Origin: an uncultured Desulfosporosinus sp.
GTDB taxonomy: Bacteria; Bacillota; Desulfitobacteriia; Desulfitobacteriales; Desulfitobacteriaceae
Assembly: GCA_927405585.1 (NCBI GenBank)
Contig: CAKMJS010000088.1
Span: 1 to 54,590, forward strand
Length of the DNA stretch: 54,590 bases
Reading direction: 5' to 3'
Made by a program: the position numbers and the translations under genes. A model generated the notes under the pieces. It did not search any database and was not told the origin of the DNA. It was given only the letters and a program-made list of their open reading frames with translations. Shown here in pieces: positions 39,989 to 54,590 of this stretch (positions within the stretch are counted from its first letter, which is position 1; each line of letters opens with the position of its first letter).

Positions 39989-40399
39989 TTATCGCGAGCG
40001 GCTTTCAACTTTCTTTCTAATGGTATCCACCAAACTCTGGTCAAATACTTGTTGTCCAGAAGAAAGCAGCTCTCCATCGCAAATAACAGCAGGTGTCCGG
40101 AAGAGAAAAATTGTATTGAGGGCTTGGAAAAACGGAATCCTGTTATTAAACGTTTCTTTGATTAATTTGGGGATTAAATAGAGAGGGTTCCTGGGATCGA
40201 CCAGGATCACTTCAACTCGATCAGAAAATTCTTCTCTTAACTTTCTGTATAAATCCCTAGCGCTTTCGGTTTCCAATTGATTATAACTAAATGGATCCTC
40301 TTTACCAAGTTCCCTGATAAATTGTCCGTCCAACGGAACGCAACAGGCCGCTACCATTTCGTCCTGTTCACGGATTATGATTACATTATGCTTTGGCAT
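39989..40399 (-). CDS. uncharacterised protein coupled to cstA
   Basis: 136 residues, soluble. Begins MPKHNVIIIREQDEMVAACCVP with a Cys-Cys pair, and contains VEVILVDPRNPLYLIPKLIKE. The segment TPAVICDGELLSSG is reminiscent of thioredoxin-like arsenical/disulfide proteins. It starts inside the last codons of cstA (14-base overlap), so the two are co-translated. Family not recognised with certainty. Confidence 0.7.
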   Translation of the reverse strand: MPKHNVIIIREQDEMVAACCVPLDGQFIRELGKEDPFSYNQLETESARDLYRKLREEFSDRVEVILVDPRNPLYLIPKLIKETFNNRIPFFQALNTIFLFRTPAVICDGELLSSGQQVFDQSLVDTIRKKVESRSR

Positions 40400-42029
40400 T
40401 GGTCTGGGAAGGATTACTCGATTTTTTCAGGGCTTGGAATGCGAAAACCGCTAAGACAATAGCTAAAACAAAGAGAATAACTGCCATTATGGCGAGAGAA
40501 GCATGCCCTGCTTTAAAATTATTGATACTAAATAGCGCTAAAGCGGTAAGGGTAAACGAGAAGATAAAGTACATGGGAATTTGGGTAAATAGGCTACTCT
40601 TACCGATTTTAGTCAGCCAGACAGATACTGCTAGGAGCGCCAAAGCAGCAAGTAATTGGTTCGCTGCGCCGAAAATCGGCCAAATAGTCATTCCTTGACC
40701 ACTATAAGCTAGATATGCACCCGGGATTATGGTAATAATCGTAGCAACATACCTATTTAAGGAAGATATCGTTTCACCTTTAGCATCTTTATTGCTGGCA
40801 GCAGATTCAAAGAGTTCTTGGAGAATATACCGTCCTAAGCGGGTGGCAGTATCTAATGAAGTGAGAGCGAACGCAGAAACTACTAATGATGCAAAAACCT
40901 TGCCGACTGCCAGAGGAATTCCGAATGTGGCCAAGAAGGTGGCTGTACCACTGGCAAAGACAGGAACTGCTCCGCCACCGGTAGTCATAATTTGCTTATA
41001 AACATCTGGGGCCAACATTATGGCAGTTATTAAGGCTACTACTGCCAGCGTAGATTCAATTAACATACCGCCGTACCCAATTATCCGAGCATCGGTCTCT
41101 TTATCCAATTGTTTAGAAGTAGTGCCGGAAGCAACTAAAGAGTGGAATCCCGACAAAGCTCCGCAAGCGATTGTGACAAATAATACGGGGAATAAATAAT
41201 TCGTGCCTACTTTAAAGCCTGCATAAGCGGTCATTTGGATTGTCGGGTGGTACAGGAAAAGACCAATTACAGATCCAGCAATGAGTGCATAGAGTAAGAA
41301 AGAGTTCAAATAGTCACGTGGTTGGAGCAAAACCCAAACGGGAATAACCGAAGCGACGAAGACATAAATCATTTGCAATGTAATCCATGTACTAAAGGAA
41401 AGTTTAAGCGGAAATAGTATCCCCAGCCAAATACAGACGAAGAGCAGAGCGACGCCGATTATAGTTGTAATAAGCATCGGTAAGTTTTTGCGGTAAACAC
41501 CAAAACCAAAACCTAGGGCTACGACCATGAAGAGAATTGAAGCGGTTCCTGCTTGTGGGGTGGCCACAAATGTTTTGGCGATGATAATTGCAAAAACAGC
41601 AATGACTAAAATAAGGGTTAACCAAGCAAAGATATTAAACAACAGCTTACCGGTCTTACCCATAGTATCGTTAATGACAACGCCTATGGATTTACCTTTA
41701 TGCCTAACTGACGCAACAAGCGAACCGAAGTCGTGTACGGCACCAAAAAAGATACCCCCGAAAACAATCCAGAGATACGCTGGAATCCAACCGAAGGTGG
41801 CCGCTGTAATCGGACCGACAATTGGAGCTGCTCCGGCGATCGAAGCGAAATGATGCCCTAATAATATAGGCGCTTTAGCTGGAACATAGTCTACACCATC
41901 TTCCATAGTATGGGCAGGAGTAGGTCTTGTATTATCTAAACCAAATTTGTTCGCTAACCATTTACCATAGGTTAGATAAGCGACTATAAAGGCGATAAGA
42001 GCAACCACAATCAATACTAATGAGTTCAC
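40386..42029 (-). CDS. cstA: carbon starvation protein A (CstA family transporter)
   Basis: 547 residues with about 15 membrane helices. N-terminal CstA domain signatures: YLTYGKWLANKFGLD, LLGHHFASIAGAAPIVGP, HDFGSLVASVRHKGKSIG. Family members take up pyruvate or peptides. A short soluble gene overlaps its 3' end, and an uncharacterised gene lies 16 bases upstream. Confidence 0.95.
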   Translation of the reverse strand: MNSLVLIVVALIAFIVAYLTYGKWLANKFGLDNTRPTPAHTMEDGVDYVPAKAPILLGHHFASIAGAAPIVGPITAATFGWIPAYLWIVFGGIFFGAVHDFGSLVASVRHKGKSIGVVINDTMGKTGKLLFNIFAWLTLILVIAVFAIIIAKTFVATPQAGTASILFMVVALGFGFGVYRKNLPMLITTIIGVALLFVCIWLGILFPLKLSFSTWITLQMIYVFVASVIPVWVLLQPRDYLNSFLLYALIAGSVIGLFLYHPTIQMTAYAGFKVGTNYLFPVLFVTIACGALSGFHSLVASGTTSKQLDKETDARIIGYGGMLIESTLAVVALITAIMLAPDVYKQIMTTGGGAVPVFASGTATFLATFGIPLAVGKVFASLVVSAFALTSLDTATRLGRYILQELFESAASNKDAKGETISSLNRYVATIITIIPGAYLAYSGQGMTIWPIFGAANQLLAALALLAVSVWLTKIGKSSLFTQIPMYFIFSFTLTALALFSINNFKAGHASLAIMAVILFVLAIVLAVFAFQALKKSSNPSQTNAKA

Positions 42030-42045
42030 AAAGATAACCTCCTCA

Positions 42046-42603
42046 CTATTTCTTAAAAGTAATGATTTTTCTGAGTTTATTAAATCCCCTGTCTAATTGT
42101 GTTTGCTTGAAGACCGGTAAATAAAATTTTTTCACCTCCTTGCCTCTTCTATTTGCAACGACTTTATTAGAAGAGGGAATTACAAGAATTAGTCGGATCT
42201 CAGCCCATCCTTCCAGAGTCAACTTGTAGTTCTTCCGGTAACGAAAAGAACTAATTTGCGCTTCGAGCTGAGAATCCGGTTCTTGGTCAACAATCAGGAC
42301 ACCTGTGATTATACTTTCCATATGCTCAGAATGTGGTTTCACCAAATGTGTAATTGCATCTTGCAGATACTTTGTAAATTCATGGAAGGTCTGTTCATTG
42401 AGATCATTGAATGATTTAATGAAAACATACTCATAATTCTCGGCCCCCCAAAGCTTGATATTTTTAGAGACAAAATATTTTTCATTTTTTACTTCTAAGG
42501 TGGCGAAAAGATCAATCACTTGACCCTGTAGGTTAATATGTTTTTGAATACTGAAATATTCGGATAATCTATTTTCAATAATGTCTAAATATGAATTTAT
42601 CAT
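42046..42603 (-). CDS. uncharacterised soluble protein upstream of cstA
   Basis: 185 residues, no signal peptide or membrane helix. Mixed alpha/beta with a basic C-terminal third (ANRRGKEVKKFYLPVFKQTQL). I do not recognise it. The 16-base gap to cstA implies one operon, so a role in its regulation or activity is plausible. Confidence 0.65.
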   Translation of the reverse strand: MINSYLDIIENRLSEYFSIQKHINLQGQVIDLFATLEVKNEKYFVSKNIKLWGAENYEYVFIKSFNDLNEQTFHEFTKYLQDAITHLVKPHSEHMESIITGVLIVDQEPDSQLEAQISSFRYRKNYKLTLEGWAEIRLILVIPSSNKVVANRRGKEVKKFYLPVFKQTQLDRGFNKLRKIITFKK

Positions 42604-42967
42604 TTGATCGCTTCTCCCTTAATCAATTAAATCACAAATTTACCAAGGTTTTTATATATTAGTTTTTATGTAAAAATATTCATATTATGTTCGTATTTTG
42701 ATTTTATGCCTAATACCATGAGAAGTCAATTACTAAATTTTCAGATTTTATTATAACTTCCAGTACTCAATTTTGCTTCACTTATATGGCTGCGTAGCAT
42801 TATGGTTCTGCAAAATTAATCAAAAAGTAGCTCTACCGTTTAGGTTTGTTTGTACGTGTCTGTTTTAATTAACTGCACCATAATTCCTTTGACATTTGAC
42901 GACAAAAAAGCATGTAACTCGGTTTCTATAAACCTAAGTTACATGCTTAAATTTCAGGCGGATAAAC
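42604..42967. other. 364-bp spacer htrA - cstA unit
   Basis: AT-rich; contains the htrA terminator hairpin at 42908-42948 and presumably the promoter of the 185-aa gene. Nothing else seen. Confidence 0.5.
42908..42948 (-). terminator. htrA terminator
   Basis: AAGCATGTAACT ... AGTTACATGCTT hairpin followed on the - strand by TTTTTTG. Confidence 0.8.
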
Positions 42968-44116
42968 TTATTCAGACTTTATTTCCGTAAGCGTCACTGA
43001 GACGTCCATAGTCTTATTCTCGCGGAACACCGTGACGGTAACCGTGTCACCTGGCTTATACTTAAACAATTCACGGGTCAAACCCAAGGAGTTCTTAATG
43101 GCGGTACCATTAATCTTCGTCAGGACATCCCCGGTACGAATTCCTGCCTTATCGGCTGGTCCACCAAGCGTCACTTTGGCAACGTATGACCCAGCTGGCC
43201 ACCCTTTTTGACTTGCATATTCCGTGGTATAACGAGGATCGATTTGTACATTAAGACCTGGATGACTGGCATATCCTTTTTCTATCAGTTGTTTAATCGT
43301 CGGCAATGCGTCAGAAATCGGGATCGCAAAACCCATTCCCTCAAATCCTGGTTCCTTATTCTTTGCGGAGTTAATCCCAATAACCAGTCCTTGGTAATTG
43401 ACAAGAGGTCCGCCACTATTTCCTGGGTTAATGGCCGCATCGGTTTGGATGAGGTTAAAACTTGCCTCCCCCTCAATCTCTAAGATCCGATTCATTGCCG
43501 AAATAACGCCTGTCGTCACGGATCGCGCAAATTCTTGGCCTCCGGGGTTTCCGATCGCAACCACCGGTTCACCGACTTGTAGTATAGAAGAATCTCCCTG
43601 TTGCGTGGCAGTTAGATTTTTGGTATCTGATATTTGTACTACCGCTAAGTCCGTACGCCTATCGCCACCTACAAGTTTGGCATTAATATTTCGACCATCT
43701 GCCAGGCTGACAACAATTTTTTCCGCACCTGCGATCACATGGTTGTTCGTGACAATGTAGCCATTTTTTGAGTCAATGATAAAACCTGACCCACTTCCCA
43801 CTTCTGTTAGACCACTCCCACCGAATACAGACCCTGTGGTTCGAAAATTTGCAATTCCAACCACAGCGGGGCCAGTGGCTTTGGCAATCTGAGCTACAGG
43901 AAAATTAGCAAGCCCTTCCGTATTAACTGCGGGAGTTGATGGCCCACCATTTAAAACTACTTGATTCGTGGGTGGCTGTTGTTGACCATATATCGATGGA
44001 ACCAGTGCCACCGCGATGACCCCTCCCAATAAGGCACTAATTAAAGCAACAGCAACCGTCGAAAAAAAACCGGATCGTCTACCTGAATAATGATCTTTAT
44101 CGTTATAATAGCTCAT
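42968..44116 (-). CDS. htrA: HtrA/DegP-like membrane serine protease
   Basis: 382 residues: N-terminal membrane anchor (about 19-40), trypsin-like domain with His126 (TNNHVIAG), Asp156 (RRTDLAVV) and Ser234 (PGNSGGPL), then one PDZ domain. Extracytoplasmic quality-control protease. It lies 23 bases downstream of walJ, the YycJ-HtrA pairing of Gram-positive walK loci; walRK are not in this stretch. Confidence 0.95.
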   Translation of the reverse strand: MSYYNDKDHYSGRRSGFFSTVAVALISALLGGVIAVALVPSIYGQQQPPTNQVVLNGGPSTPAVNTEGLANFPVAQIAKATGPAVVGIANFRTTGSVFGGSGLTEVGSGSGFIIDSKNGYIVTNNHVIAGAEKIVVSLADGRNINAKLVGGDRRTDLAVVQISDTKNLTATQQGDSSILQVGEPVVAIGNPGGQEFARSVTTGVISAMNRILEIEGEASFNLIQTDAAINPGNSGGPLVNYQGLVIGINSAKNKEPGFEGMGFAIPISDALPTIKQLIEKGYASHPGLNVQIDPRYTTEYASQKGWPAGSYVAKVTLGGPADKAGIRTGDVLTKINGTAIKNSLGLTRELFKYKPGDTVTVTVFRENKTMDVSVTLTEIKSE

Positions 44117-44139
44117 GAATGACTAACCCCCTCTGACTA

Positions 44140-44949
44140 TTATTCCTTCAACACGATCAATTCATGCGGCGAGTGACGCGGTGCAACCTGTACCTGCACC
44201 TCCATGCACTCTTTCAATCTATTTGAATCTCTCAGAATACGCATAACAGTAGACAACGCGATTTCCGGAGTATTATTTTCTTCACTAAGATGCGCCAATA
44301 AAATCCGCTGAGTGTTTTCTGCCATCCACTCTAATAGTCCTTCCGCTACCTGCATATTATCTAGATGCCCGTATTGTCCCCTAATCCGCTTCTTCAGATA
44401 CGCTGGATACGAGCCAAACTTTAGCATTTGGTCATCATAGTTCGCCTCAACGACAAAAGCATCACACCCTTTTAAATGACGGTGCATTTCTTCTGTAATT
44501 GTTCCACTATCAGTGGCAATGCCGATCGCCAAATTCCCCTTACCTTCACATTTGGGTTGTGAAATCTTTAGCCCAAAGCTTTCTCGACTGTCATGGGACG
44601 TTGGATAGAGCAAGACATCAAGCCCTGCACAGGAAAATGACTCTTGCACTTCCATCCGATGATGTTCTGCTAGTTTTCCTAGGAAAGGACTCATGGCGTC
44701 CCAAAGCCTAGTTGTGGCATAGATCGGTATATTTAGTTTGCGGGCGAGCACACCCACTCCCCGGATATGGTCCACATGTTCATGCGTCACAACAATTCCT
44801 TCAATTTCTGAGCCCGATATATTTAAGCAAGAGAGGTTATGTAATATGCTCTTCCCACTGATCCCACAATCCACGAGTAAATGTCGGTTACCCTCTCCGA
44901 CAAGAATTGCGTTTCCGGAACTTCCGCTCGCTAAGGTCGTAAAATGCAT
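44140..44949 (-). CDS. walJ: WalJ/YycJ metallo-beta-lactamase-fold exonuclease
   Basis: 269 residues. Metal ligands in THEHVDHIRG (His56, His58, Asp60, His61); FTTLASGSSGNAILV at the N terminus is the YycJ signature. Bacterial members are DNA exonucleases linked to repair. Upstream of htrA as in Bacillus. Confidence 0.93.
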   Translation of the reverse strand: MHFTTLASGSSGNAILVGEGNRHLLVDCGISGKSILHNLSCLNISGSEIEGIVVTHEHVDHIRGVGVLARKLNIPIYATTRLWDAMSPFLGKLAEHHRMEVQESFSCAGLDVLLYPTSHDSRESFGLKISQPKCEGKGNLAIGIATDSGTITEEMHRHLKGCDAFVVEANYDDQMLKFGSYPAYLKKRIRGQYGHLDNMQVAEGLLEWMAENTQRILLAHLSEENNTPEIALSTVMRILRDSNRLKECMEVQVQVAPRHSPHELIVLKE

Positions 44950-45063
44950 TGATTATCCTCCGTTCCGGTAAATGAATTATAGCAAGAAACTACCAGGAGG
45001 AAGTGAAGCTTTTGTGAACATCTTGTTAACAAATTTCAAATCCTCCTAGGTTGAGTTGTAAAG

Positions 45064-45732
45064 TTATTCTTTTAAAATAGGATTTGACAAACCGTCCGGT
45101 GCCTTACCCTCACTCTTTAATTGGCTTTGTGCTTGACTAATGATTGACTTAATCTGTTCTTTTTCTGTAGCAGTCTTGGCAATTTCCTGAGCCTTTTGCC
45201 ACTGAGCTATAGCCGCTGGCAGATCTTGCTTAACATTAGCCAAAAACACCCCATAATTAACCAAACCGTTATAAAAATCAGGTTTAAGTGCTAACGCTTC
45301 TTTAAAACTCTTGTCCGCGAGTTCATTATCTCCACTTTTAAAGGCTGCAGTGGCCAAATCCACCATAACGTTAGGATCTTTATCTGTCTTTAATACATTC
45401 TGGTAAGCCATAACAGCTTGTTTATAATGTCCCTCTACCTCAGTTGGCGCAGCCGTTTCGGCTGCCAGCCCTGTGTCATAATACTCATTTCCCAGAGCTT
45501 TTTGGAGTGGAATATTCTCAGGTTCCAGCTTAGCTTTCTCAACGATCCCATTTAGGCGCAGCTTTTGGGCTTCGTAATTTGCTTTTGCATTGCCTGTTTG
45601 GTTAACTCCACTCGTACCGTAAGGTGCCTCATCCCCAGTAAAGAAAAACACAAGAAGTCCTGATCCCACCATAGCAACACTAACTAGAATAGCGAGAATT
45701 CCCGCAAAGATACGTTGTGTTTTTTTCTTCAA
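45064..45732 (-). CDS. membrane-anchored TPR protein
   Basis: 222 residues: short basic N terminus, membrane helix (about 9-32, IFAGILAILVSVAMVGSGLLVFFF), then at least three tetratricopeptide-like repeats (KALGNEYYDTGLAA, VDLATAAFKSGDNELADKSFKEALALKP, NYGVFLANVKQDLPAAIAQWQKAQ). Faces outward; scaffold or assembly role inferred only. Confidence 0.85.
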   Translation of the reverse strand: MKKKTQRIFAGILAILVSVAMVGSGLLVFFFTGDEAPYGTSGVNQTGNAKANYEAQKLRLNGIVEKAKLEPENIPLQKALGNEYYDTGLAAETAAPTEVEGHYKQAVMAYQNVLKTDKDPNVMVDLATAAFKSGDNELADKSFKEALALKPDFYNGLVNYGVFLANVKQDLPAAIAQWQKAQEIAKTATEKEQIKSIISQAQSQLKSEGKAPDGLSNPILKE

Positions 45733-45826
45733 AATGATTCTCCCCCTAGGCTATTTCATTTCCAAATATTATTGTAACATGTCTAATCAAAACCATCCAA
45801 CCTTTTGTCTCAAAACTATTAACTTA

Positions 45827-47317
45827 TTAACAGCGAACTTCTTGAGTAGGAGAAGAGATTCTATTCTGCTGGATTTCATTAATTTTAAGATAAAGCGCCA
45901 CCTCTAAGCGTTTCTTTTGAAGCTCGCACCCCAGAGTATAAACATCTGTCAGTGTCTGGGTGAATGAGACATTCGCAGCATGACACCCCCCACTACAAGA
46001 AAAGCGTGCCCAACACTCTCGGCAAGACGATTTGGCATAGACATTTGCCGCGCGAAAGGCCTGAACCAACTCGCCCTTGAGTTGATGAGGATTTTCGTCA
46101 TAGAGTGAACCCATTTTATAGTCAGCTTGACCAACAAACTGATGACACGGATAAAGATCACCCTCGGGAGAAATCGCTACATACTCGTGACCAGCGCCAC
46201 ATCCCGATAGCCGTTTGATCAAACAAGGCCCCTGATCTAATGCGACATTGAAATGAAAAAAGTTAAAATCACGATCTTGGGCTCGCCGTAGTATGAGCTC
46301 CTCCCCAAGGCGATCATACGCTTCGAGAATTTTATCTAGATCCCCTGCTTGAAATGCATAAGCATCCTTCGGGCCTGCCACGACTGGTTCCACAGAAATC
46401 TGCTTGATACCTAAATCTGCCATATGCAAAACATCCTGATCAAAATCACAATTGAAATGGGTATACGTCCCACGAACGTAGTAATAATTCCCTACCGCAA
46501 AGGGTGAGCTTTCCGGCCGTTTAGCAGCAAACTGCTTGATAAGAGGGGTAACCTTGGCGTAACTTCCTCGACCGTCAGCGTAAGGCCTCATACGATCATG
46601 AACCTCTGGGCGACCATCTAAGCTTAAGACCACACTGATCTCCTCTTGCTCGAGATAAGCTTGGATTTTCTCATTTAGTAATACGCCGTTGGTGGTCAGA
46701 GTAAATTTAATGGTCTTATTTTTCTCTGCTGCAGCTTTCTTACCGTAGTCTACTAAATCTTTAATCACCTTAAAGTTAAGTAGCGGTTCTCCACCGAAGA
46801 AATCAACTTCACAATGATTTCGGTGACCTGATGACTCTATGACAAAGTCGATCCCCCTTTTACCCGTCTCAAAATCCATCAGGGTCCTGCTACCTCCAAA
46901 GGCCCCTGTCCCTGCAAAACAGTATTCGCACCGCAAATTACAATCATGGGCCACATGTAGGCAAATCGCTTTGACGATGGGGCGTTCAGGGTAATTCGGA
47001 GTTACTAACTCCGCCTCAACGGAGAAAAGCGTTCCTTCCCGACGCAGTTCATCAAGCTCGGTAAGAATCTCAGAAAGTTCTTCTTCCACAAGGGTTTGTT
47101 TCCCAGCTTGTCTAAGGACCTGGTTAATCCCCTCCAGCGAAATCTCCTTCTCTGATTCTTGTAAACTCTCGCATGCCTTTATAACCTCATAAGTTCCCTC
47201 ATCCAGCAGATGCAATGATCCAGAATTGACATCATGCGCAATCAATAAATCTCCTTGACGATAACTATGAACGTTCTTGCTGATATGATATCCATGAATA
47301 TTAAAAATATCTAACAT
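45827..47317 (-). CDS. SCIFF peptide radical SAM maturase (CteB-like)
   Basis: 496 residues. Cluster cysteines in HDCNLRCEYCFAG, DFFGGEPLLNF, and a SPASM domain ending CRECWARFSCSGGCHAAN. This family makes Cys-to-Thr thioether crosslinks in the SCIFF peptide of Clostridia. The SCIFF gene lies 100 bases upstream on the same strand with a hairpin between. Confidence 0.96.
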   Translation of the reverse strand: MLDIFNIHGYHISKNVHSYRQGDLLIAHDVNSGSLHLLDEGTYEVIKACESLQESEKEISLEGINQVLRQAGKQTLVEEELSEILTELDELRREGTLFSVEAELVTPNYPERPIVKAICLHVAHDCNLRCEYCFAGTGAFGGSRTLMDFETGKRGIDFVIESSGHRNHCEVDFFGGEPLLNFKVIKDLVDYGKKAAAEKNKTIKFTLTTNGVLLNEKIQAYLEQEEISVVLSLDGRPEVHDRMRPYADGRGSYAKVTPLIKQFAAKRPESSPFAVGNYYYVRGTYTHFNCDFDQDVLHMADLGIKQISVEPVVAGPKDAYAFQAGDLDKILEAYDRLGEELILRRAQDRDFNFFHFNVALDQGPCLIKRLSGCGAGHEYVAISPEGDLYPCHQFVGQADYKMGSLYDENPHQLKGELVQAFRAANVYAKSSCRECWARFSCSGGCHAANVSFTQTLTDVYTLGCELQKKRLEVALYLKINEIQQNRISSPTQEVRC

Positions 47318-47354
47318 ACATTGTCCTCTCTTTCTTACCTATCCATTAAATAGA

Positions 47355-47387
47355 ACAGAACCCAACCCGTATGTGGGTGGGTTCTGC
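47355..47387 (-). terminator. partial terminator between SCIFF and its maturase
   Basis: GCAGAACCCACCC / GGGTTGGGTTCTG followed by TTCTATTT; likely lets most transcripts end after the abundant SCIFF peptide. Confidence 0.65.
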
Positions 47388-47416
47388 AATCTTATGTTCA
47401 AATATAGCCAAAGCGT

Positions 47417-47557
47417 TTATTTAACACACACTTGGTTCCCAACCGTGCACGACGTCTTACAAGCAGATTGGCAAGAAGTCTGACACTTGCCACACCCTCC
47501 GGTCTTCACTGTTGCACTTAGGTTTGCTTTCACTATGGTCTGAATGTGTTTAGCCAT
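47417..47557 (-). CDS. SCIFF peptide (six cysteines in forty-five residues)
   Basis: 46 residues: MAKHIQTIVKANLSATV leader, then a core with exactly six Cys (22, 25, 29, 33, 37, 44) in GGCGKCQTSC ... CKTSC. Too short for ordinary gene callers. GAGGAGGGTGTTTGA precedes the ATG and a TGTTATAAT extended -10 lies about 47 bases upstream. A near-universal clostridial RiPP of unknown role. Confidence 0.95.
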   Translation of the reverse strand: MAKHIQTIVKANLSATVKTGGCGKCQTSCQSACKTSCTVGNQVCVK

Positions 47558-47603
47558 TCAAACACCCTCCTCTCGATACTCACGTCATTTAATTCATTTT
47601 TAA

Positions 47604-47609
47604 ATTATA
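47604..47609 (-). promoter_or_regulatory. extended -10 box for the SCIFF gene
   Basis: TGTTATAAT on the - strand, 47 bases before the SCIFF start; no good -35 box, consistent with an extended -10 promoter. Confidence 0.45.
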
Positions 47610-47640
47610 ACACATAGACAAGGAAAAAGGCACGAGGTTT

Positions 47641-48603
47641 TTAACTAACATTTTGGGATTTATGTCCAAAGATACTATGTGAGGTCATGCCGAGTATCAC
47701 AAGACCCATCCCAACTAAAGACCAAAGGGTCGGATATGCCCCATGGAGAATCACCAATTCTCCAATGAGAACAAAAATAACTCCCCCTGCTTGCGTCGCT
47801 TCGACGGCAGCGAGTTTATGGACATCTCCCTTTGTCATATCAGTTGCTGAGAAGAAGAGTATCGTGGCAATGACCCCGGAAGAAATGGCCACGATAAGAG
47901 TTTGAATTATCTGGTTGCTGCTGGGAAGTCCGACTTCTGCTACCCCAAGTGCCGATAATATCAACCAAAAGGGAAGGCTTGCCAGTGTCATTCCAAGGAC
48001 TCGTTGATAAACGTCGAACTGGCGCCCACAGGCGACCATCATTTTTCGATTACCTAAAGGGTAAGCAAAGGCAGCGAGTAGGACGGGTACACTTCCCAAC
48101 AATACTTCTTTAACAGTAAGTGCCTGGGCCTGCTGCAGCTGAATTAGCATGATACCAACTATAATGATTAGAGAAAGGGCCAGGCCTTGTACAGGGATTG
48201 TAGATCGGACTTTTCGGGGTCCTGATTCCGTTTGAATCACTATATAAAAAAACGGAGCAAGCAGCGATCCTGCCACAATTGTAATCTGCCACATACTGGC
48301 GACTAACCAAGCGGGTCCATATGCAGCTGCAAAACATAGAGGTGCATAGAAGAGTCCGAATCCCACGGTACTCCAACCGAGCCAAATCACGGCTCTTTTA
48401 CGCATATCCAGTAATAGAGGCCTAAGATTCCCTCTCACCATAACAATAATAAGTAGCATCGGTGCCATAAAAATAAATCTTAGAGACGCACTCCATATCC
48501 AACTACCTCCTGATAAGTCCATAGCCCGATTCATAACAAATGTCACAGCAAAAAACAACGATGCTAATACCCCCAGCGCAATGGCCTTCAAACTCTTTAC
48601 CAC
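47641..48603 (-). CDS. DMT-superfamily multidrug exporter (EmrE-like, 10 TM)
   Basis: 320 residues with ten membrane helices in two similar halves, the layout of drug/metabolite transporters of the multidrug-resistance efflux family. Start is GTG at 48603 or possibly the TTG four codons later, which is better spaced from AGGGTGG. It is the last chromosomal gene before the tRNA fragment. Confidence 0.8.
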   Translation of the reverse strand: MVKSLKAIALGVLASLFFAVTFVMNRAMDLSGGSWIWSASLRFIFMAPMLLIIVMVRGNLRPLLLDMRKRAVIWLGWSTVGFGLFYAPLCFAAAYGPAWLVASMWQITIVAGSLLAPFFYIVIQTESGPRKVRSTIPVQGLALSLIIIVGIMLIQLQQAQALTVKEVLLGSVPVLLAAFAYPLGNRKMMVACGRQFDVYQRVLGMTLASLPFWLILSALGVAEVGLPSSNQIIQTLIVAISSGVIATILFFSATDMTKGDVHKLAAVEATQAGGVIFVLIGELVILHGAYPTLWSLVGMGLVILGMTSHSIFGHKSQNVS

Positions 48604-48725
48604 CCTATCGAGAAATTTTTAATTTGTTATAGAATAACACGAATTACGGCATTAAGGCAGCTAAGCCTAAATAAAAAAAGACTCAGAATTCCTTCTAGGA
48701 AACCCTGAACCCTTGTGATTTCATA

Positions 48726-48774
48726 TGGAGCGGACGACGAGATTCGAACTCGCGATCCTCGGCTTGGGAAGCCG
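48726..48774 (-). pseudogene. 3' fragment of tRNA-Gly(CCC), likely attachment site
   Basis: On the - strand it begins at the anticodon stem (CGGC-TTCCCAA-GCCG, anticodon CCC), followed by a T-arm with TTCGAAT and an acceptor strand CGTCCGCT-CCA. The 5' half (acceptor GCGGACG and D-arm) is absent; the bases that should precede it do not pair or match. A 3' tRNA remnant of this kind is the normal trace left by integrases that target tRNA genes. By that logic the element lies on its 5' side, to the right in this window. Confidence 0.75.
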
Positions 48775-49036
48775 TTTAAAATCTTCGAATGGTTCAAACC
48801 CGCATCACCACTGCATTTGAGGTATATTGTTTTCTAACAGAGTAACGGCTTACTCCTTATTTTGCATTATATACAAGAATTTACGTAAAGTCCATCGATT
48901 ACATATTATCCTAATTTACATTGCCTTATAGAATTTGCCTATCAACGGAGAAAAGAGGCTTAGAGGTAATATCATAAACAACCCTATTAACACCCTGCAC
49001 CTAGTTAAACACTGATGGAATAAGGGTTTTCGATAG

Positions 49037-49075
49037 TGGTGGTTTAGATGTTTTACTAATTGGTGGTTTAGATGT
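49037..49075. repeat. direct repeat, 2 x TGGTGGTTTAGATGT, 24-bp period
   Basis: Exact 15-mer copies at 49037-49051 and 49061-49075. Multiple short terminal repeats containing TTTAGATGT are seen at IS21-type ends, so this could be an IS remnant (inference). Confidence 0.6.
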
Positions 49076-49303
49076 CTCAACTTGCACTTCTTATTATAAT
49101 GTATAGAAATACGGATTCCAACAAAATACCAAGAATACTGTTCAAAGTACACAATATTTAAACTTTAAGCTTGTTGTTGTTCACTTCAATTCTTCTTATA
49201 GTATGAGCTATTGAGTCTTTCTTTTAACAGTTCCCTCCAAGTGCCATGAAAAGTGTGTTTTACATTATTGGGTATAGTCAAGTTTTCAGCTGTCATGGAA
49301 AAG

Positions 49304-49891
49304 TTAGTTAGTTTTACTCTCAATAAAATACGTAGCTTCCATATCCGCAGTACTTAAAGCAAATGATAAAGGAAACTGTTCAAAGGAATTACCAATACTC
49401 CTTTTATCTTCAGTACCAGAAAAACCCATATGATACCTGATAGCAAATGCTTCCTCACGTGTAAGTTTCATAAAGCCTGTAATTATATATACAGATTTTT
49501 CACCATGACCATAAGGAAGCTTATCGTCATATTCATAGATTGGCACAGCTCTCCAAACTCCATTATCATCCTTGACGTTTCTTGAACCTTTTTTATAGCA
49601 GTTTATTTTACAAATATCATGCAAAAGGGCTACAATCGCTATTGTTTCGTCATTATATGCCATATTATATAATTTATTAACTCTCTCTCTTGACAAATAG
49701 TCCTTTAAACAATGATAAACATTTATACTATGCTCTACCAATCCACCTTCGTAAGAGCCATGAAATCTTGTACTTGATGGTGCAACAAAAAAATCACTTG
49801 ACGTAGATGTTAAATATTCAAGTAATGAATCACATCCAGTCCGTTTAATATTAGATTTGTATATATTTAAAAATTCTTTTCTTTTATCCAC
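49304..49891 (-). CDS. stand-alone HD-domain phosphohydrolase (third gene of the RT operon)
   Basis: 195 residues. HD metal residues: His54 (GGLVEHSINV), His91-Asp92 (ALLHDICKI), His129 (PYGHGEKS), His154 (IRYHMGF) and Asp183 (STADMEA). Similar small HD hydrolases are frequent in Gram-positive mobile elements; they can act on nucleotides or nucleic acids. Ten bases separate it from the RT gene, so it is in the same operon. Codon use is AT-rich like its neighbours. Confidence 0.85.
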   Translation of the reverse strand: MDKRKEFLNIYKSNIKRTGCDSLLEYLTSTSSDFFVAPSSTRFHGSYEGGLVEHSINVYHCLKDYLSRERVNKLYNMAYNDETIAIVALLHDICKINCYKKGSRNVKDDNGVWRAVPIYEYDDKLPYGHGEKSVYIITGFMKLTREEAFAIRYHMGFSGTEDKRSIGNSFEQFPLSFALSTADMEATYFIESKTN

Positions 49892-49901
49892 TTTTTTCCC
49901 T

Positions 49902-52900
49902 CTACTTTTCTATAGCACTTTTAACAATATCTATATAATCACCAGGTATATTTCCATCCTCACTGTAATAAAGATTGCATCTAATATGTGTTTCAAATCT
50001 ATTACTTGGATTTCTACGTAAATACTTCTGTAATTCATATAACTCTTCAAAAAGATAATTATGTTTTCTTGCCATCCATTTGCATAAAAAAGAACAGGGA
50101 CTACTACACTTATGTGTTTTATCATCAATAATTTCAATGGCTATCTTATCTTCGTTTATTTTGCTCTTTAAATGTTCACAATTATTTGATTTGATAGCAG
50201 TCAGTTGCTTAGTATTAAGATATATATCTACACAAACCGTTTCATGAAACAGTTCCTTTTTTAAATAACTTTTAACCTTATCTTCCTCTGGCATATACAA
50301 TTCATACTTTGTATGAACTTCACATTTATCAATAGCCAGATGTGAAATCCAATGGAATTTGGACATGTCTGGCATGTTCTTAATATTCTGACGTAAAATA
50401 TTTAAGCTCACCCTGTCCTTTGTCATATCTAACAAATCGGCTAGTCTTAGTAATATCATCAAATATTTATCACTTATTATATCGTTTTTCGCATTTGATT
50501 TAAGTCCATAAACATCCTTACAATTATATCCATGAGCTTCTGATATTTTAGAAACAAACGCTTTTACAGCTTTGTCGATAAAATAAAGATCATTTGTATC
50601 ATTAATGAATCGCGAGCTTGCTTTTGCATGATTGTCTCGAATATAAACCTCAAAGTAATTATTAACTTTTTCGTAATAGTCTTTTATAAAATTCTTAATT
50701 AATGACTTCGGTGCGGTTTCAGTACATTTAATTTTATCTAAAAAATCAATTTTCCATTGACTATAAATCAAGTCAGACTCCATCTCAGGTTCAGCAAATC
50801 TATTTAATTTTGGATACAAAACCATAGATACATCATGTAAATAACAGGATAAAAACAATATGAAATAATCCATTTCCTTTAAATCATAGTAATCTATAGA
50901 TTTTGTTATATCTAAAGTTCTATTGATTAATTCTATTGAATGTTCTTCATTATGCATAGTATAAAAATGGAGGAATTTTGAACCATTTTTCCATATTCCA
51001 TTTACATATTTATGCGTAAGTATTAGCTCATCAATATTCTTGGGACTTTTAACATATCTTTTAAATATAGGTAAAACTTCTAATATGGAAAAGTCAATTT
51101 TTTCAGAACAAATTCCTTTTTTAAAATCATTAAGAACTTCTTCAGAAAATAATACAAATTGTTTTATATCAAAATATTTATTTCTTACAAAAGCTAATAG
51201 TCTTAATTGGTAATATTTTAAAGAGCGAGAATCCATTCGAAGAAAATTATAACTATCATTTATATTTACGCACATAATTCTTGAGATTACACCGTTTATT
51301 ATTATTCTTTTAAATTCAGAAGATGAATAATAGATAAATTCGATATAATCAGTTTCAATTCCTAAATAATCTTTGATTAACAAAAGTTCACCTTTATTAA
51401 GAATTGTAATAATATTGGATAATTCTTTTATTTCATTTTGAGAATTGACCTTAGTATAAGGTTCAATTTTCTTAGAAATTATTAAATCCAATGTTTCATA
51501 TTTATCAGTCTTATATTCTAGCTTTATTATATTACCAGTTAATACTTTTTCAAAATAATAATTTGATGGCAATTTTCCAGTTGAAAGCTTTTTCTCAAGT
51601 TTGGAAATACTAGAAAGTATTTCTTTTTGTTTTTTTGGATTTTTGCTTAATTGTCTTATAATCATATGAGCTTCTGCTAGGAAAATATCTTCATCAAGCA
51701 TTTTAAATAGTTTTTCTATTTGGGTTTTATCGTCATTTTTTAAATCTAAAGAATACTTATTATAAAAATCAATTACATCACTTTCTGATATTTTATTATT
51801 ATCACGAAGCTCCATAATTTTAAGTCTATATTTAAAAAACTTCTGATATCTTTTCAAGAGTTTAAGATAGTTATTTCGCTCCTCAAGTCTAATTGCGGTG
51901 GAATTGCTTTCATCTTCTTGCATTGTATCCTTTAGTAATTGTATTTCTTTTTCTGTTGCGAGTTGAAAAACAGCAATTTTTTCTTTCAAAGTAGAATCCT
52001 CAAACTCATCTGAAGAAGTAGCAATATCAAATGGAACTGTTGATGCTTGTTTGGCGAGAAATTCAAGATATACTTGCCCATACTTTTTGTCAATTTCACT
52101 TATTGAACTTTTCCCTGTAGGATGAATTTTGATTTCGTAATTAACAAGTCTTTCGAAAGATGGGATATCTAAGAAATCGAATTCCTCTTGTATATATTTA
52201 GTAGCTAGAACGGCGTTTAGCTTCTTTAGTTTCTCTGGAAATTCCTCAACCGATAAATCATTTGCATATATAACGGAATCATCAACATAGTAATAGGACT
52301 CTCCTTTAAAACTTGCATCAAATTCTTTTGAAATATCTATCATGCATAAGTTTGCAAAAAAATATGCTTGGGGTAGCCCTTGGGGAATACCTACAGAATA
52401 GAATAATTTCTTCTCTTTGATAATCTCAATCGAGTCTATGGATTTTAGAGAAAGACCATAATACAACTCAGCATATTCTGAAATATCATGCATTTTAAAG
52501 TATAACATTTTCTTTATTAGCATTTTGAGGCATTCCATTTCATCTCCTATATATATTGTTGATAATTTCTCAAGGATAATTTTATTTACAATGTTTGGAT
52601 TTATTGACGGGAAAAAATTTACCAAATCTAATACAATTTCGTATTTATATTTTTTAGTCGAACTGTATTCTTTATATGCTGATATAAAGGCTTCCGAATA
52701 CTCTTTATACTTTGTTTTCCAATCTACAAATAAACTACTAACATTTGTGCTAGGAATATTTCCATAAAAATTAGATGGTAGCAACTTACTAATATCGGAT
52801 AATTTTCTGGTTTTTCCATCAGAATCATCAAACATTATCTGATTAAGCATACATACTAAGCATATTTGTGTAATCAGATTAGCTGTATGCATTGGACGAA

Positions 52901-53189
52901 ATATAGCTTGTTCTGTATCATAATCATATTTTTTAGGTTTAAGATAAACACTGATTTCAAACAAAGTTTCTTCTTTAAGAAAAATTTCTTTGAGTTTTTT
53001 CTCACAGGATATCATTACATGATTTATAAGCTTAAAATTGAACTTATCTCTAAGTTCATTTAGTAGCTTTATGTCCTCTTGTGATAATAAATCTTTTTCA
53101 AATATATACGACTCAACGCAATAAATAGATGAATAAATATTCGACCTATTTATAACTCTTTTATATAATCGTGTATCTTTAATATTCAT
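49902..53189 (-). CDS. reverse transcriptase fused to a C-terminal HD phosphohydrolase domain
   Basis: 1095 residues. The N-terminal half is a reverse transcriptase: motif A LDLVNFFPSI with Asp188, motif B GIPQGLPQAYFFANL at 267-281, motif C YVDD at 301-304, so all three catalytic Asp are present. A long coiled, Lys/Glu-rich linker follows (about 400-700). The C-terminal part holds an HD domain: His746/His750 (HNEEHS), His785-Asp786 (YLHDVSM), His854 (DNHAKAS) and Asp918 (LRLADLLD); a Cys-rich patch CSSPCSFLC lies at 1028-1036. No group II intron maturase or endonuclease domain, no integrase. Middle gene of a three-gene operon on an integrated island. I know no characterised system with this build; it is nearest in spirit to the Abi/UG/DRT defence RTs. 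Confidence 0.9.
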   Translation of the reverse strand: MNIKDTRLYKRVINRSNIYSSIYCVESYIFEKDLLSQEDIKLLNELRDKFNFKLINHVMISCEKKLKEIFLKEETLFEISVYLKPKKYDYDTEQAIFRPMHTANLITQICLVCMLNQIMFDDSDGKTRKLSDISKLLPSNFYGNIPSTNVSSLFVDWKTKYKEYSEAFISAYKEYSSTKKYKYEIVLDLVNFFPSINPNIVNKIILEKLSTIYIGDEMECLKMLIKKMLYFKMHDISEYAELYYGLSLKSIDSIEIIKEKKLFYSVGIPQGLPQAYFFANLCMIDISKEFDASFKGESYYYVDDSVIYANDLSVEEFPEKLKKLNAVLATKYIQEEFDFLDIPSFERLVNYEIKIHPTGKSSISEIDKKYGQVYLEFLAKQASTVPFDIATSSDEFEDSTLKEKIAVFQLATEKEIQLLKDTMQEDESNSTAIRLEERNNYLKLLKRYQKFFKYRLKIMELRDNNKISESDVIDFYNKYSLDLKNDDKTQIEKLFKMLDEDIFLAEAHMIIRQLSKNPKKQKEILSSISKLEKKLSTGKLPSNYYFEKVLTGNIIKLEYKTDKYETLDLIISKKIEPYTKVNSQNEIKELSNIITILNKGELLLIKDYLGIETDYIEFIYYSSSEFKRIIINGVISRIMCVNINDSYNFLRMDSRSLKYYQLRLLAFVRNKYFDIKQFVLFSEEVLNDFKKGICSEKIDFSILEVLPIFKRYVKSPKNIDELILTHKYVNGIWKNGSKFLHFYTMHNEEHSIELINRTLDITKSIDYYDLKEMDYFILFLSCYLHDVSMVLYPKLNRFAEPEMESDLIYSQWKIDFLDKIKCTETAPKSLIKNFIKDYYEKVNNYFEVYIRDNHAKASSRFINDTNDLYFIDKAVKAFVSKISEAHGYNCKDVYGLKSNAKNDIISDKYLMILLRLADLLDMTKDRVSLNILRQNIKNMPDMSKFHWISHLAIDKCEVHTKYELYMPEEDKVKSYLKKELFHETVCVDIYLNTKQLTAIKSNNCEHLKSKINEDKIAIEIIDDKTHKCSSPCSFLCKWMARKHNYLFEELYELQKYLRRNPSNRFETHIRCNLYYSEDGNIPGDYIDIVKSAIEK

Positions 53190-53212
53190 TAGATAATCTC
53201 CACTCTCTACTC

Positions 53213-53713
53213 TTATTTTTTAGATAATGATAATATAAATGTAGCAAATTTATTATTAATATCTTCTACTACTTTATGTTTTGTAGAATCTTTACAATTT
53301 ACATTAAAAACATATTCCTGAACTGGCTCGCTCAGAGTACGACAAATAAAAACTATATTATTTTTTTTAATTTCATGATAACAAAAATCTTCATTATTGA
53401 TGATAATTAATTTTCCTATACCAGGTATGCGATACTCAAAAATATTATCAAATAATAAACAAATATTAGGTATCTCTTCACTGCTTTTAACACTTTTAAG
53501 TATAAGCTTAATGGATTCATTACAGATTAAATATTTCTCTCGAAATATTTCTACTTTACTAAAAAAATCATCTAGAGAATCCGTTAAATATGTTTGATTA
53601 TATTTAAAATTTACATTTGATGAAAGGTAAATAGAAAATAGTTCCAAAATATCTTGAGTATTTGTGTCAATGGTTACATCAATAGATTTTTGTAGGATGT
53701 CTTTGATAAACAT
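53213..53713 (-). CDS. unknown first gene of the RT operon
   Basis: 166 residues from the ATG at 53713, which has AGAGGGGGATTAGATCA before it (an upstream start at 53743 would overlap the -10 box). No family recognised, no membrane segment; mixed alpha/beta, acidic N-terminal half, with LIIINNEDFCYHEIKKNNIVFICRT-type strands in the middle. It ends 23 bases before the RT gene. Confidence 0.7.
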   Translation of the reverse strand: MFIKDILQKSIDVTIDTNTQDILELFSIYLSSNVNFKYNQTYLTDSLDDFFSKVEIFREKYLICNESIKLILKSVKSSEEIPNICLLFDNIFEYRIPGIGKLIIINNEDFCYHEIKKNNIVFICRTLSEPVQEYVFNVNCKDSTKHKVVEDINNKFATFILSLSKK

Positions 53714-53745
53714 TGATCTAATCCCCCTCTTACATCTAGACATAA

Positions 53746-53751
53746 ATTATA
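53746..53751 (-). promoter_or_regulatory. -10 box of the RT operon
   Basis: Perfect TATAAT on the - strand, 33 bases before the first start codon; the -35 region has no strong match. Confidence 0.45.
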
Positions 53752-53954
53752 TCCAACTAAAACAAAGGTTCTGTAAATCCTTTTCAAAACCCATATTTAT
53801 CTCTATCTTTCAACATGTTTCCTTAATATTCCTCCTTAAACATTAATTGTTGGAAATATATATATTAAAAATCAGTAAATATCTTGTGGGGCAGACAAAA
53901 AATGAAGAGTTAGTTAATATTTATGACATTAAATTGTGTTAAAATACTTCAACC

Positions 53955-53987
53955 AACCAAGGACAGGTGTCTTACTTTTTCTTGGTT
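53955..53987. ncRNA. nested hairpin upstream of the RT operon
   Basis: AACCAAG / CTTGGTT enclose GACA-GG-TGTC. Structure only; whether it is transcribed is unknown. Confidence 0.3.
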
Positions 53988-54125
53988 ATACTTGAATTCA
54001 GCCTCAACATCATTTCGGAGTTAATACGGTAATTACTAATTGTTAATCACTAAGCCTAATTCTTGTGTTTAACTGTCTTTAGTTTTCAGAGGAATTTATC
54101 TCCACTTATTGTTTTTTTATAGATT

Positions 54126-54196
54126 GGTGAACAAAGAAAAGATTCACCATTACAACTAAATGAAAGATTTTCATTGTAGGTGGGTGATCCAGTCAC
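54126..54196. ncRNA. three consecutive hairpins, candidate structured RNA
   Basis: GGTGAA/TTCACC (54126-54148), TACAA..ATGAAA/TTTCAT.TGTA (54151-54178) and GTGA/TCAC (54184-54196) in direct succession within non-coding DNA. Several defence RTs need a nearby non-coding RNA template, which makes this worth testing; strand not determined. Confidence 0.3.
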
Positions 54197-54296
54197 AGTT
54201 GTCAAAATAACTTGCCGATAAATGAAGATGTACTATGCACATTATAGTTTGTTAAAATAATGTCTACTGTTGTAAACACCCCCACCTATAAGCACA

Positions 54297-54328
54297 AAAA
54301 AGAAGGGTTATTATCCCTTCTTCTTAAG
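54297..54328 (-). terminator. terminator of the truncated gene
   Basis: AAGAAGGGATAATAACCCTTCTTTTTT on the - strand: short GAAGGG/CCCTTC stem and a T6 run. Confidence 0.8.
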
Positions 54329-54339
54329 CTTCGTATTCA

Positions 54340-54478
54340 TTAATCATCTTCGTATTTTGCAATTTGATTAATCTCTGTACCCTGAGGGTCATTGAGGGAA
54401 TCAATTAACTCTTTAAGCACAATTAAATCCATTTCTCTTTGCCCACTATCCCCCTGTGTTACGATAGTTGACGTAAGG
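54340..54478 (-). pseudogene. 3' end of a gene cut by the IS, or 30-aa peptide
   Basis: Frame open for 45 codons ending LKELIDSLNDPQGTEINQIAKYEDD, 11 bases before a real terminator. An internal ATG at 54432 has only a poor ribosome binding site. The upstream part meets the IS end, so I read it as the tail of a disrupted gene of unknown family. Confidence 0.45.
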
Positions 54479-54524
54479 ACTTAGGAAAAGTATCCTTGAA
54501 AAGGAACACAGGAGGGAGAACGAC

Positions 54525-54590
54525 ATGAGATATCCTAAAGAGTTAAAGAGTTCTATCATTGCGAAGATGTTACCGCCCAATAACCAGTCT
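54525..54590 (+). CDS. transposase OrfA-like, 5' end only
   Basis: The 22 visible codons (MRYPKELKSSIIAKMLPPNN...) match the start of IS3-type OrfA helix-turn-helix proteins. AGGAGGG lies eight bases upstream. Truncated by the window end, a common place for draft contigs to stop at a repeated IS. Confidence 0.7.
   Translation, partial: MRYPKELKSSIIAKMLPPNNQS

What the first reader, a model, noticed from the sequence alone, without database searches (positions are those of the whole stretch)
49902..53189. Reverse transcriptase fused to an HD phosphohydrolase: candidate new RT-based defence protein
Seen: intact RT catalytic set (Asp188, GIPQG at 267-271, YVDD at 301-304), a coiled linker, and a separate HD site (His750, His785-Asp786, His854, Asp918) in one 1095-residue chain, with no maturase, endonuclease or integrase domain. 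Known: Abi/UG/DRT reverse transcriptases are antiphage systems and often carry or neighbour other enzymatic domains. Inference: the RT makes DNA or nucleotides that the HD domain senses or degrades, or the HD domain depletes dNTPs on phage infection. I do not recall a described group with a C-terminal HD domain in this arrangement.
Basis: partly seen in the sequence, partly recalled or inferred. Interest (0 to 1): 0.88.

Follow-up and report, generated by a model that had tools for sequence, protein, structure and literature searches.

The report
UG24 reverse transcriptase fused to HD hydrolase
This gene is a rare but already catalogued kind of bacterial reverse transcriptase (group UG24) that carries its own metal-dependent hydrolase domain and is probably an antiphage enzyme; databases list the group, but I found no laboratory study of it.

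Summary
The novelty claim is not: the chain matches PADLOC's RT_UG24 model end to end (1093.5 bits), and papers define Class 3 UG/Abi RTs by a fused nitrilase or phosphohydrolase. I found five relatives: three in Bacteroidota-side genomes, two on IMG/VR contigs. The six are 31-55% identical and keep every catalytic residue. A small gene lies just upstream in 6 of 6; it matches PADLOC RTas1299 in 3 and no PADLOC RT-partner model in 3. Three also have a DnaG-like gene. One copy lies between type I modification/specificity genes and Zorya-like genes. No single place beside the operon is free for a template RNA in all six. Best reading: a Class 3-like abortive-infection system whose DNA synthesis controls the HD-CE hydrolase. 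Identity is near certain, defence likely, mechanism inferred from DRT1 and untested.

The parts
49902..53189 (-). RT-HD protein, 1095 aa, UG24 family defence-associated reverse transcriptase
   Evidence: Open frame; PADLOC RT_UG24 1093.5 bits, residues 6-1094
52206..52673 (-). Reverse transcriptase domain as matched by Pfam RVT_1 (residues 173-328): D188, GIPQG 267-271, YVDD 301-304
   Evidence: D188 and Y301-V302-D303-D304 invariant in 6 of 6 UG24 members, P269 in 4 of 6
50313..50966 (-). HD-CE domain (residues 742-959) with H746, H750, H785, D786, H854, H886, D918, R926
   Evidence: Pfam PF24391 81.2 bits; these residues invariant in the 26 HD-CE sequences aligned (5 of them UG24) and in 6 of 6 UG24 members
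50082..50180 (-). C-terminal cysteine cluster (C1004, C1032, C1036; C1028 nearby), probable zinc site
   Evidence: C1004, C1032, C1036 invariant 6 of 6, C1028 not; metal binding is inference
53213..53743 (-). Small partner protein, 176 aa, 23 nt upstream of the RT-HD start
   Evidence: PADLOC RTas1299, 34.6 bits; a small gene in the same place in 6 of 6 loci
49304..49891 (-). 195-aa HD phosphohydrolase, GTG start 10 nt after the RT-HD stop with a plausible ribosome site (AGAGGG); probably the same operon here, not seen next to the other five copies
   Evidence: Pfam HD 24.9 bits, phrog_28876 171.9 bits; 38 of 50,697 phage records match; sequence read; absence elsewhere judged by eye from ORF lists
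48726..48814 (-). tRNA-Leu(taa)-like gene at the edge of the acquired segment
   Evidence: ARAGORN; Rfam tRNA 25.8 bits, under the 29-bit gathering score; no tRNA found in 19 of 19 congener loci compared
48648..54590 (.). Low-G+C, probably acquired segment, truncated by the contig end
   Evidence: 24-32% G+C in the 10 windows from 49000 on, against 33-47% (15 of 17 windows at 39% or more) from 40000 to 48999; similarity to congeners stops between 48572 and 48647 in 19 of 19 loci

Best explanation
It is a member of UG24, a rare group of defence-associated reverse transcriptases, next to a conserved small gene. Shown: family identity, intact RT and HD-CE active sites under strong conservation, the small gene in the same place in six loci, and one copy inside a defence island. 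Inferred: like the Class 3 enzymes DRT1 and DRT5, the RT domain makes DNA without a nucleic-acid template, primed on the protein itself; the state of this DNA, altered during phage infection, switches the HD-CE domain between resting and active forms; active HD-CE hydrolyses phosphoester or pyrophosphate bonds of an essential nucleotide or signal and stops growth of the infected cell. The small protein is inferred to be the regulator or sensor.
For: UG24 model end to end: 1093.5 bits window, 1076, 1231, 1216, 1271 bits in four relatives, 436 and 548 bits for the two halves in L005. Six members at 31-55% identity keep 181 invariant columns including D188, YVDD, H746, H750, H785, D786, H854, H886, D918. 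HD-CE family residues intact. Defence island in 1 locus: L005 lies 21 nt after a type I specificity gene (243 bits; methyltransferase 593 bits) and before ZorA/ZorB/ZorC-like genes (94/244/22 bits). No room for a template RNA at one common place: L013 has overlapping genes within the operon and 2 nt downstream, L005 21 nt upstream, the window 10 nt downstream. DRT1 and DRT5 of Class 3 make protein-primed, template-free DNA and DRT1's DNA controls its fused nitrilase (PMC13275509, passages). The model of residues 700-1095 (pLDDT 81.2) aligns with exopolyphosphatase C-terminal regions and cyclic-nucleotide PDE catalytic domains (Z 14.5 and 13.1).
Against: No experiment. The RT part scores only weakly against Drt1a (31.3 and 38.3 bits, in two members), UG17 (about 40) and UG6 (21-29), so a close tie to DRT1 is not shown. 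DRT1's priming serine is said not to be conserved in other Class 3 enzymes (PMC13275509). A template RNA elsewhere in the genome, at different places in different members, or overlapping genes is not excluded. Foldseek gave no PDB match at E<=0.001, and helical models can reach Z about 13-14 without kinship (note). The full-length structure prediction failed (pLDDT 41.6), so RT-HD contact is unmodelled. Only 1 of 6 loci showed recognised defence genes among the neighbours that I scanned, and I scanned only some neighbours.
Confidence: 0.45

Rival explanations
1. The RT copies a template RNA (Class 2 style) encoded near the operon, and the cDNA is the effector or the trigger for HD-CE.
For: Class 2 DRTs do this (PMC13174585, PMC12489045, passages). 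Window and L004 share a 33-nt, 85% identical stretch about 100-155 nt upstream of the small gene, reached by 0 of 200 shuffles.
Against: No common free site beside the operon in all six loci. The core of the shared stretch (17 nt, up to 3 mismatches) is not found in L005, L012, L013 or L061, and L004 has a second copy before an unrelated gene beside what looks like a Bacteroidetes promoter (promoter motif recalled). No Rfam match at E<=0.1 in 48000-54590 other than the tRNA.
Confidence: 0.15
2. HD-CE depletes dNTPs during infection (SAMHD1 or dGTPase style) and the RT merely senses or uses the pool.
For: HD domains include dNTP hydrolases (general knowledge); one chain joins a dNTP user and an HD site.
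Against: HD-CE keeps H746, H750, H785-D786, H854, H886, D918, a longer histidine set like that of two-metal HD phosphodiesterases rather than the H-HD-D of dNTPases (both recalled). No direct test.
Confidence: 0.15
3. HD-CE is a restraint: it removes or trims the RT's DNA product or a signal, acting as antitoxin or off-switch, and the DNA is the toxic agent.
For: In DRT4 and DRT9 the DNA itself drives defence (PMC13213688, part 1 of 2 of the text seen).
Against: 16 of 21 non-UG24 HD-CE frames that I could read carry an HSP90-type motif, and HD-CE thus seems to work with other partners as well, which suits a free effector module; this is only suggestive.
Confidence: 0.15
4. The DnaG-like primase makes the primer or template for the RT in all UG24 systems.
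For: Primase gene directly upstream of the small gene in 3 of 6 loci (L013, L012, L061; 359, 214, 322 bits to RTasDnaG-like).
Against: No such gene directly beside the window, L004 or L005 systems in the ORF lists. The window's contig ends 847 nt upstream of the small gene, and L005 has a primase-like gene (by eye, 266-1120) some 5.8 kb upstream, so a distant one is not excluded.
Confidence: 0.08
5. It serves mobility (group II intron or DGR), not defence.
For: It lies on probably acquired DNA; two relatives are on IMG/VR contigs.
Against: No intron RNA at E<=0.1 in 48000-54590, no maturase domain, no near-identical repeat pair in 48600-54590, UG24 identity.
Confidence: 0.02

Closest known systems
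UG24 (PADLOC-DB PDLC03762, RT_UG24; DRT)
   Same: Whole chain, RT plus HD part, 1093.5 bits over 6-1094
   Different: Nothing tested in the protein differs; the window locus has an extra 195-aa HD gene downstream and no DnaG-like gene in the visible flank
Class 3 UG/Abi RTs (DRT1 with nitrilase; DRT5)
   Same: RT fused to a hydrolase in one chain, as Class 3 is defined in PMC13275509
   Different: Phosphohydrolase instead of nitrilase; RT similarity to Drt1a only 31-38 bits, in two members
HD-CE proteins with HSP90-like ATPase
   Same: Same HD-CE domain with the same invariant residues
   Different: Partner is an ATPase-like region (N-box motif in 16 of 21 non-UG24 frames read; Pfam HATPase over cut-off in 1 of 2 scanned), not an RT
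PADLOC RTas1299 and RTasDnaG-like
   Same: Small gene of window, L004, L005 (34.6, 27.4, 17.8 bits); primase of L013, L012, L061
   Different: Small genes of L011, L012 and L061 do not match RTas1299

Membership tests
UG24 (PADLOC RT_UG24) | Full-length match to the family model | tested here: met
   1093.5 bits, residues 6-1094, model 2-1035 of 1036; next best RT_UG6 28.9 bits
UG24 (PADLOC RT_UG24) | HD region is part of the model | tested here: met
   Residues 730-975 alone 332.7 bits, model 687-914
Class 3 UG/Abi RT | RT domain plus nitrilase or phosphohydrolase in one protein (definition in PMC13275509) | tested here: met
   RVT_1 and HD-CE in one chain; that HD-CE hydrolyses phosphoesters is inferred
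Class 3 UG/Abi RT | RT falls in the Class 3 clade of the RT tree | tested here: inconclusive
   No tree against other groups was made; RT part hits UG17 about 40 bits, Drt1a 31-38, UG6 21-29. Mestre 2022 not held
[quoted passage not shown]
   Needs purified protein
Defence-associated RT (DRT) | Protects a host against phage | not testable with these tools
   Only indirect: 1 of 6 loci (L005) lies in a defence island
HD-CE (PF24391) | Score over the curated cut-off and family residues intact | tested here: met
   81.2 bits against 27; H746, H750, H785, D786, M789, H854, H886, D918, R926 shared by 26 of 26 aligned
Group II intron RT | Maturase domain and intron RNA | tested here: not met
   No maturase family at E<=1, no intron RNA in 48000-54590 at E<=0.1
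DGR | Template/variable repeat pair | tested here: inconclusive
   Longest direct repeat 31 nt at 71% in 48600-54590; only this stretch was searched and the contig ends at 54590
Retron or Class 2 DRT | Adjacent template RNA | tested here: inconclusive
   No Rfam match, no common free site in six loci; unexplained 33-nt match
dNTP hydrolase HD (SAMHD1/dGTPase) | dNTPase site and fold | tested here: inconclusive
   Only the general fold comparison was made, which cannot exclude it; no activity test

The most novel reading that the evidence does not exclude
UG24 is an immune machine in which an RT's own DNA adduct is the allosteric switch of an HD-CE phosphodiesterase-type effector, with a dedicated small regulator and, in one branch, a DnaG-like primase that feeds the RT; HD-CE would then be a common 'death hydrolase' plugged either into RTs or into HSP90-like ATPase sensors.
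Probability: 0.25. Interest if true: 0.75.

Novelty: new member of a known kind. Interest (0 to 1): 0.4.

Why it matters
I found no described mechanism for the phosphohydrolase branch of Class 3 reverse transcriptases (searches; passages). This locus gives a compact two-gene test case with a list of invariant residues and a conserved neighbour. If DNA synthesis controls a hydrolase here too, DRT1's logic is general and not tied to nitrilases.

Tried and rejected
New-group claim: rejected. Template RNA: looked for with Rfam, gene spacing and comparison of flanks; the one shared stretch looks promoter-linked in L004 and stays unexplained. In one search some 120-nt pieces of the window and L004 flanks fold more stably than their shuffles (z down to -4.9, best of many pieces; by eye terminator-like hairpins), which I did not pursue. 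Downstream 195-aa HD gene as a core part: rejected, since it is not next to the other five copies (by eye) and has relatives in 38 of 50,697 phage records and 2 of 72,556 plasmids. tRNA-Leu as a classic attachment site: not supported; the segment lies on its 5' side and congener loci show no tRNA there. Finding relatives by the plain protein failed in genome contigs, plasmids, phages and viral contigs, as did first guesses at motifs in viral contigs. Whole-protein structure (3 sequences) failed, pLDDT 41.6. No named dNTPase is among the rows listed; this excludes nothing. Small-protein homology between the two branches is weak: profile {L011, L012, L061} finds L004 E 2.1e-5 and window 2.3e-4 but L005 0.067 (best of 600 decoys 0.08); the reverse finds L012 1.1e-3 but L011 0.04 and L061 0.11 (best decoy 0.014); hhalign E 9.7e-5, probability 58, over 35 columns. 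PMC8195603 (passages) mentions HD as a possible effector but nothing on HD-CE in what I saw; the name HD-CE was not found in a relevant paper (judged by titles).
Full report
What is there. The interval 49902-53189 holds one uninterrupted frame of 1095 codons on the minus strand; the plus strand is closed. Pfam sees RVT_1 at 173-328 (30.0 bits, cut-off 29.6) and HD-CE (PF24391) at 742-959 (81.2 bits, cut-off 27).

What it is called. PADLOC's RT_UG24 model covers the whole chain, 1093.5 bits, model positions 2-1035 of 1036; the next family, RT_UG6, has 28.9 bits. The HD fragment alone scores 332.7 bits against the same model, so the HD fusion is a property of the described group and not an addition here. 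Papers quote Mestre et al. 2022 (not held) as defining Class 3 UG/Abi RTs by a nitrilase or phosphohydrolase domain: PMC13275509 (passages), PMC12489045 (passage), PMC13174585 (passages); PMC12596737 says that some UG/Abi RTs, DRT1 among them, have hydrolase or phosphohydrolase domains (passage). That UG24 is one of these Class 3 groups is my inference from its architecture; no passage I saw says so. Of 9 held papers with the word UG24, one is about RT groups, judged by titles: PMC8934634, where it stands once in a table (passages). I found no functional study of UG24; subscription papers and most preprints are not held.

How rare it is. The UG24 model matched 1 of 60 relatives, 1 of 398 genomes of the phylum and 1 of 82 of the class, each time only the window's own genome. 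In the phylum of G464 (the Prolixibacteraceae genome): 3 of 395 at E<=1e-10, of which G464 is full length and two are partial, an HD-CE protein and an RT that PADLOC calls Drt2 at 447 bits; 2 of 393 in the order of G464 at E<=1e-30; 1 of 31 and 1 of 15 around G968, both G968 itself. These sets overlap. tblastn found none in 72,556 plasmids even at E 10, nor in 50,697 phage records at 1e-5. The second genome-contig scan gave 2 relatives out of 157 pattern matches: L004 (Prolixibacteraceae JC049) and L005 (Marinilabiliaceae MAG); one search gave L011; IMG/VR gave L012 and L061 (both again). The patterns were chosen after X-masking 18 windows of the protein against the UG24 model, where NFFPSINP, SYYYVDDS, LPQAYFFA, FLSCYLHD, ILLRLADL and FHWISHLA cost most.

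What is conserved. Six members (window, L004, L005, L011, L012, L061) are 31-55% identical and share 181 invariant columns (L005's two frames set end to end). Invariant in 6 of 6: D188, Q270, Y301-V302-D303-D304, H746, H750, H785, D786, H854, H886, D918, R926, C1004, C1032, C1036. P269 of GIPQG is alanine in L012 and L061. The relatives match RT_UG24 with 1076, 1231, 1216 and 1271 bits and L005 with 436 and 548 for its halves. Pfam HD-CE is over its cut-off in 5 of 5 members scanned (window, L004, L005, L011, L012); RVT_1 is over it in the window, L004 and L011 and just under in L012 (28.9 against 29.6); L061 was not given to Pfam. In L005 the RT and HD parts are two frames overlapping by 11 nt, either a true split or a frameshift in a MAG.

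The operon. A small gene lies directly upstream in 6 of 6: window 53213-53743, L004 6968-7486, L005 6883-7470, L011 815-1492, L012 5288-5980, L061 6228-6968. The first three match PADLOC RTas1299 (34.6, 27.4, 17.8 bits); the others do not. The two branches are joined by place and by weak profile matches around a short motif, N-x-x-F-x-Y and a tyrosine or phenylalanine soon after (numbers in Tried and rejected). L011/L013, L012 and L061 have a DnaG-like gene (PADLOC RTasDnaG-like 359, 214, 322 bits) before the small gene; the window, L004 and L005 do not have one directly there. So UG24 comes as small gene plus RT-HD, with or without a primase-like gene. In the window a further HD gene (49304-49891) follows after 10 nt; it is of a type found in phages and I saw it beside no other copy.

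Surroundings. In L005 the system sits 21 nt behind a type I specificity gene and ahead of ZorA, ZorB and a weak ZorC match: a defence island. The other loci show no recognised defence system in the neighbours I scanned, which were only some of those present. The window copy lies on DNA of 24-32% G+C (10 windows from 49000 on) beside DNA of 33-47% (17 windows, 15 of them at 39% or more). EmrE-like neighbours were found in 22 of 29 genomes of the genus; 20 loci were returned, one of them the window. Similarity ends at 48572-48647 in 19 of 19 others, and in those compared further the sequence that follows differs too, so the place looks variable. The contig ends 847 nt upstream of the small gene, in what reads by eye as the start of an insertion-sequence transposase.

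The HD-CE domain. PF24391 was found in 16 of 296 genomes of G464's phylum and 7 of 249 of the window's phylum, each count including one UG24 protein. Of 25 loci, 23 gave a readable frame, many cut by the end of the locus; 16 of these, and 16 of the 21 that are not UG24, carry an HSP90-type N-box motif (the motif is recalled). Pfam confirms an HSP90-like ATPase over cut-off in L016 and only 13.7 bits, under cut-off, in L009; an earlier scan of L009 at E<=0.01 listed none. The same one search lists PDEase_I in both and Ppx-GppA_III in L016 far under cut-off. Across the 26 HD-CE domains aligned, H746, H750, H785, D786, M789, H854, H886, D918 and R926 (window numbers) never change. A model of residues 700-1095 has mean pLDDT 81.2 and pTM 0.84. 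VIA-align ranks exopolyphosphatase C-terminal regions (8jgx Z 14.5, 191 residues, 4.0 A; GppA 6pbz Z 12.5) and cyclic-nucleotide phosphodiesterases (5g5v Z 13.1, 207 residues, 5.2 A; 2o8h Z 12.5) highest; Foldseek alone has no match at E<=0.001. The fold agrees with the HD/PDE superfamily; it does not name a substrate.

How it may work. Step 1, the RT makes DNA: inferred from the intact site. Step 2, without a template RNA: inferred, since in L013 the primase overlaps the small gene, the small gene overlaps RT-HD and the next gene starts 2 nt after it, in L005 only 21 nt lie upstream and in the window 10 nt downstream, so no one neighbouring place is free in all; and since Class 3 DRT1 and DRT5 work without template (PMC13275509). 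Invariant hydroxyl residues that could prime include S383, Y564 and Y659; which one, if any, is unknown. Step 3, the DNA state governs HD-CE: by analogy with DRT1's nitrilase. Step 4, HD-CE hydrolyses a nucleotide or signal: inferred from its residues and fold. I hold identity at about 0.97, defence at about 0.8 and the four steps together at 0.45.

Verdict. A correct, sharp observation of something already catalogued. Interest lies in the untested phosphohydrolase branch of Class 3 and in the conserved gene neighbourhood assembled here.

Noticed in passing
window 47417-47557 (-) and 45827-47317 (-): A 46-aa six-cysteine peptide lies just upstream of a radical SAM/SPASM protein: by recall a SCIFF peptide with its maturase.
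   Followed up: partly
window 53839-53870 (-) and L004 about 6802-6834 (+): A 33-nt, 85% identical stretch upstream of the small gene in two hosts (0 of 200 shuffles reach it); L004 has a similar copy at 3006 before an unrelated gene. Unexplained.
   Followed up: partly
L005 7440-9224 and 9214-10767: RT and HD halves are two frames overlapping by 11 nt: natural split or frameshift.
   Followed up: partly
window 54525-54590 (+): The contig ends inside what reads by eye as the start of an insertion-sequence transposase (MRYPKELKSSIIAKML...), which may have broken the assembly.
   Followed up: no
L061 2043-3272, 10855-12051, 12688-13923, 14201-15607 (all -): By eye, three tyrosine-recombinase-like genes and a group II intron-type RT surround this UG24 copy.
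   Followed up: no
L012 471-2549 (-): By eye, a 692-aa Mu-like transposase gene beside an AAA protein, upstream of the UG24 operon.
   Followed up: no
L013 5656-6951: A 431-aa gene without a PADLOC or Pfam match starts 2 nt after RT-HD; possible extra component in that host.
   Followed up: partly
window 48726-48814 (-): tRNA-Leu(taa) with a sub-threshold Rfam score inside the probably acquired segment; may be an element-borne or decayed tRNA.
   Followed up: partly
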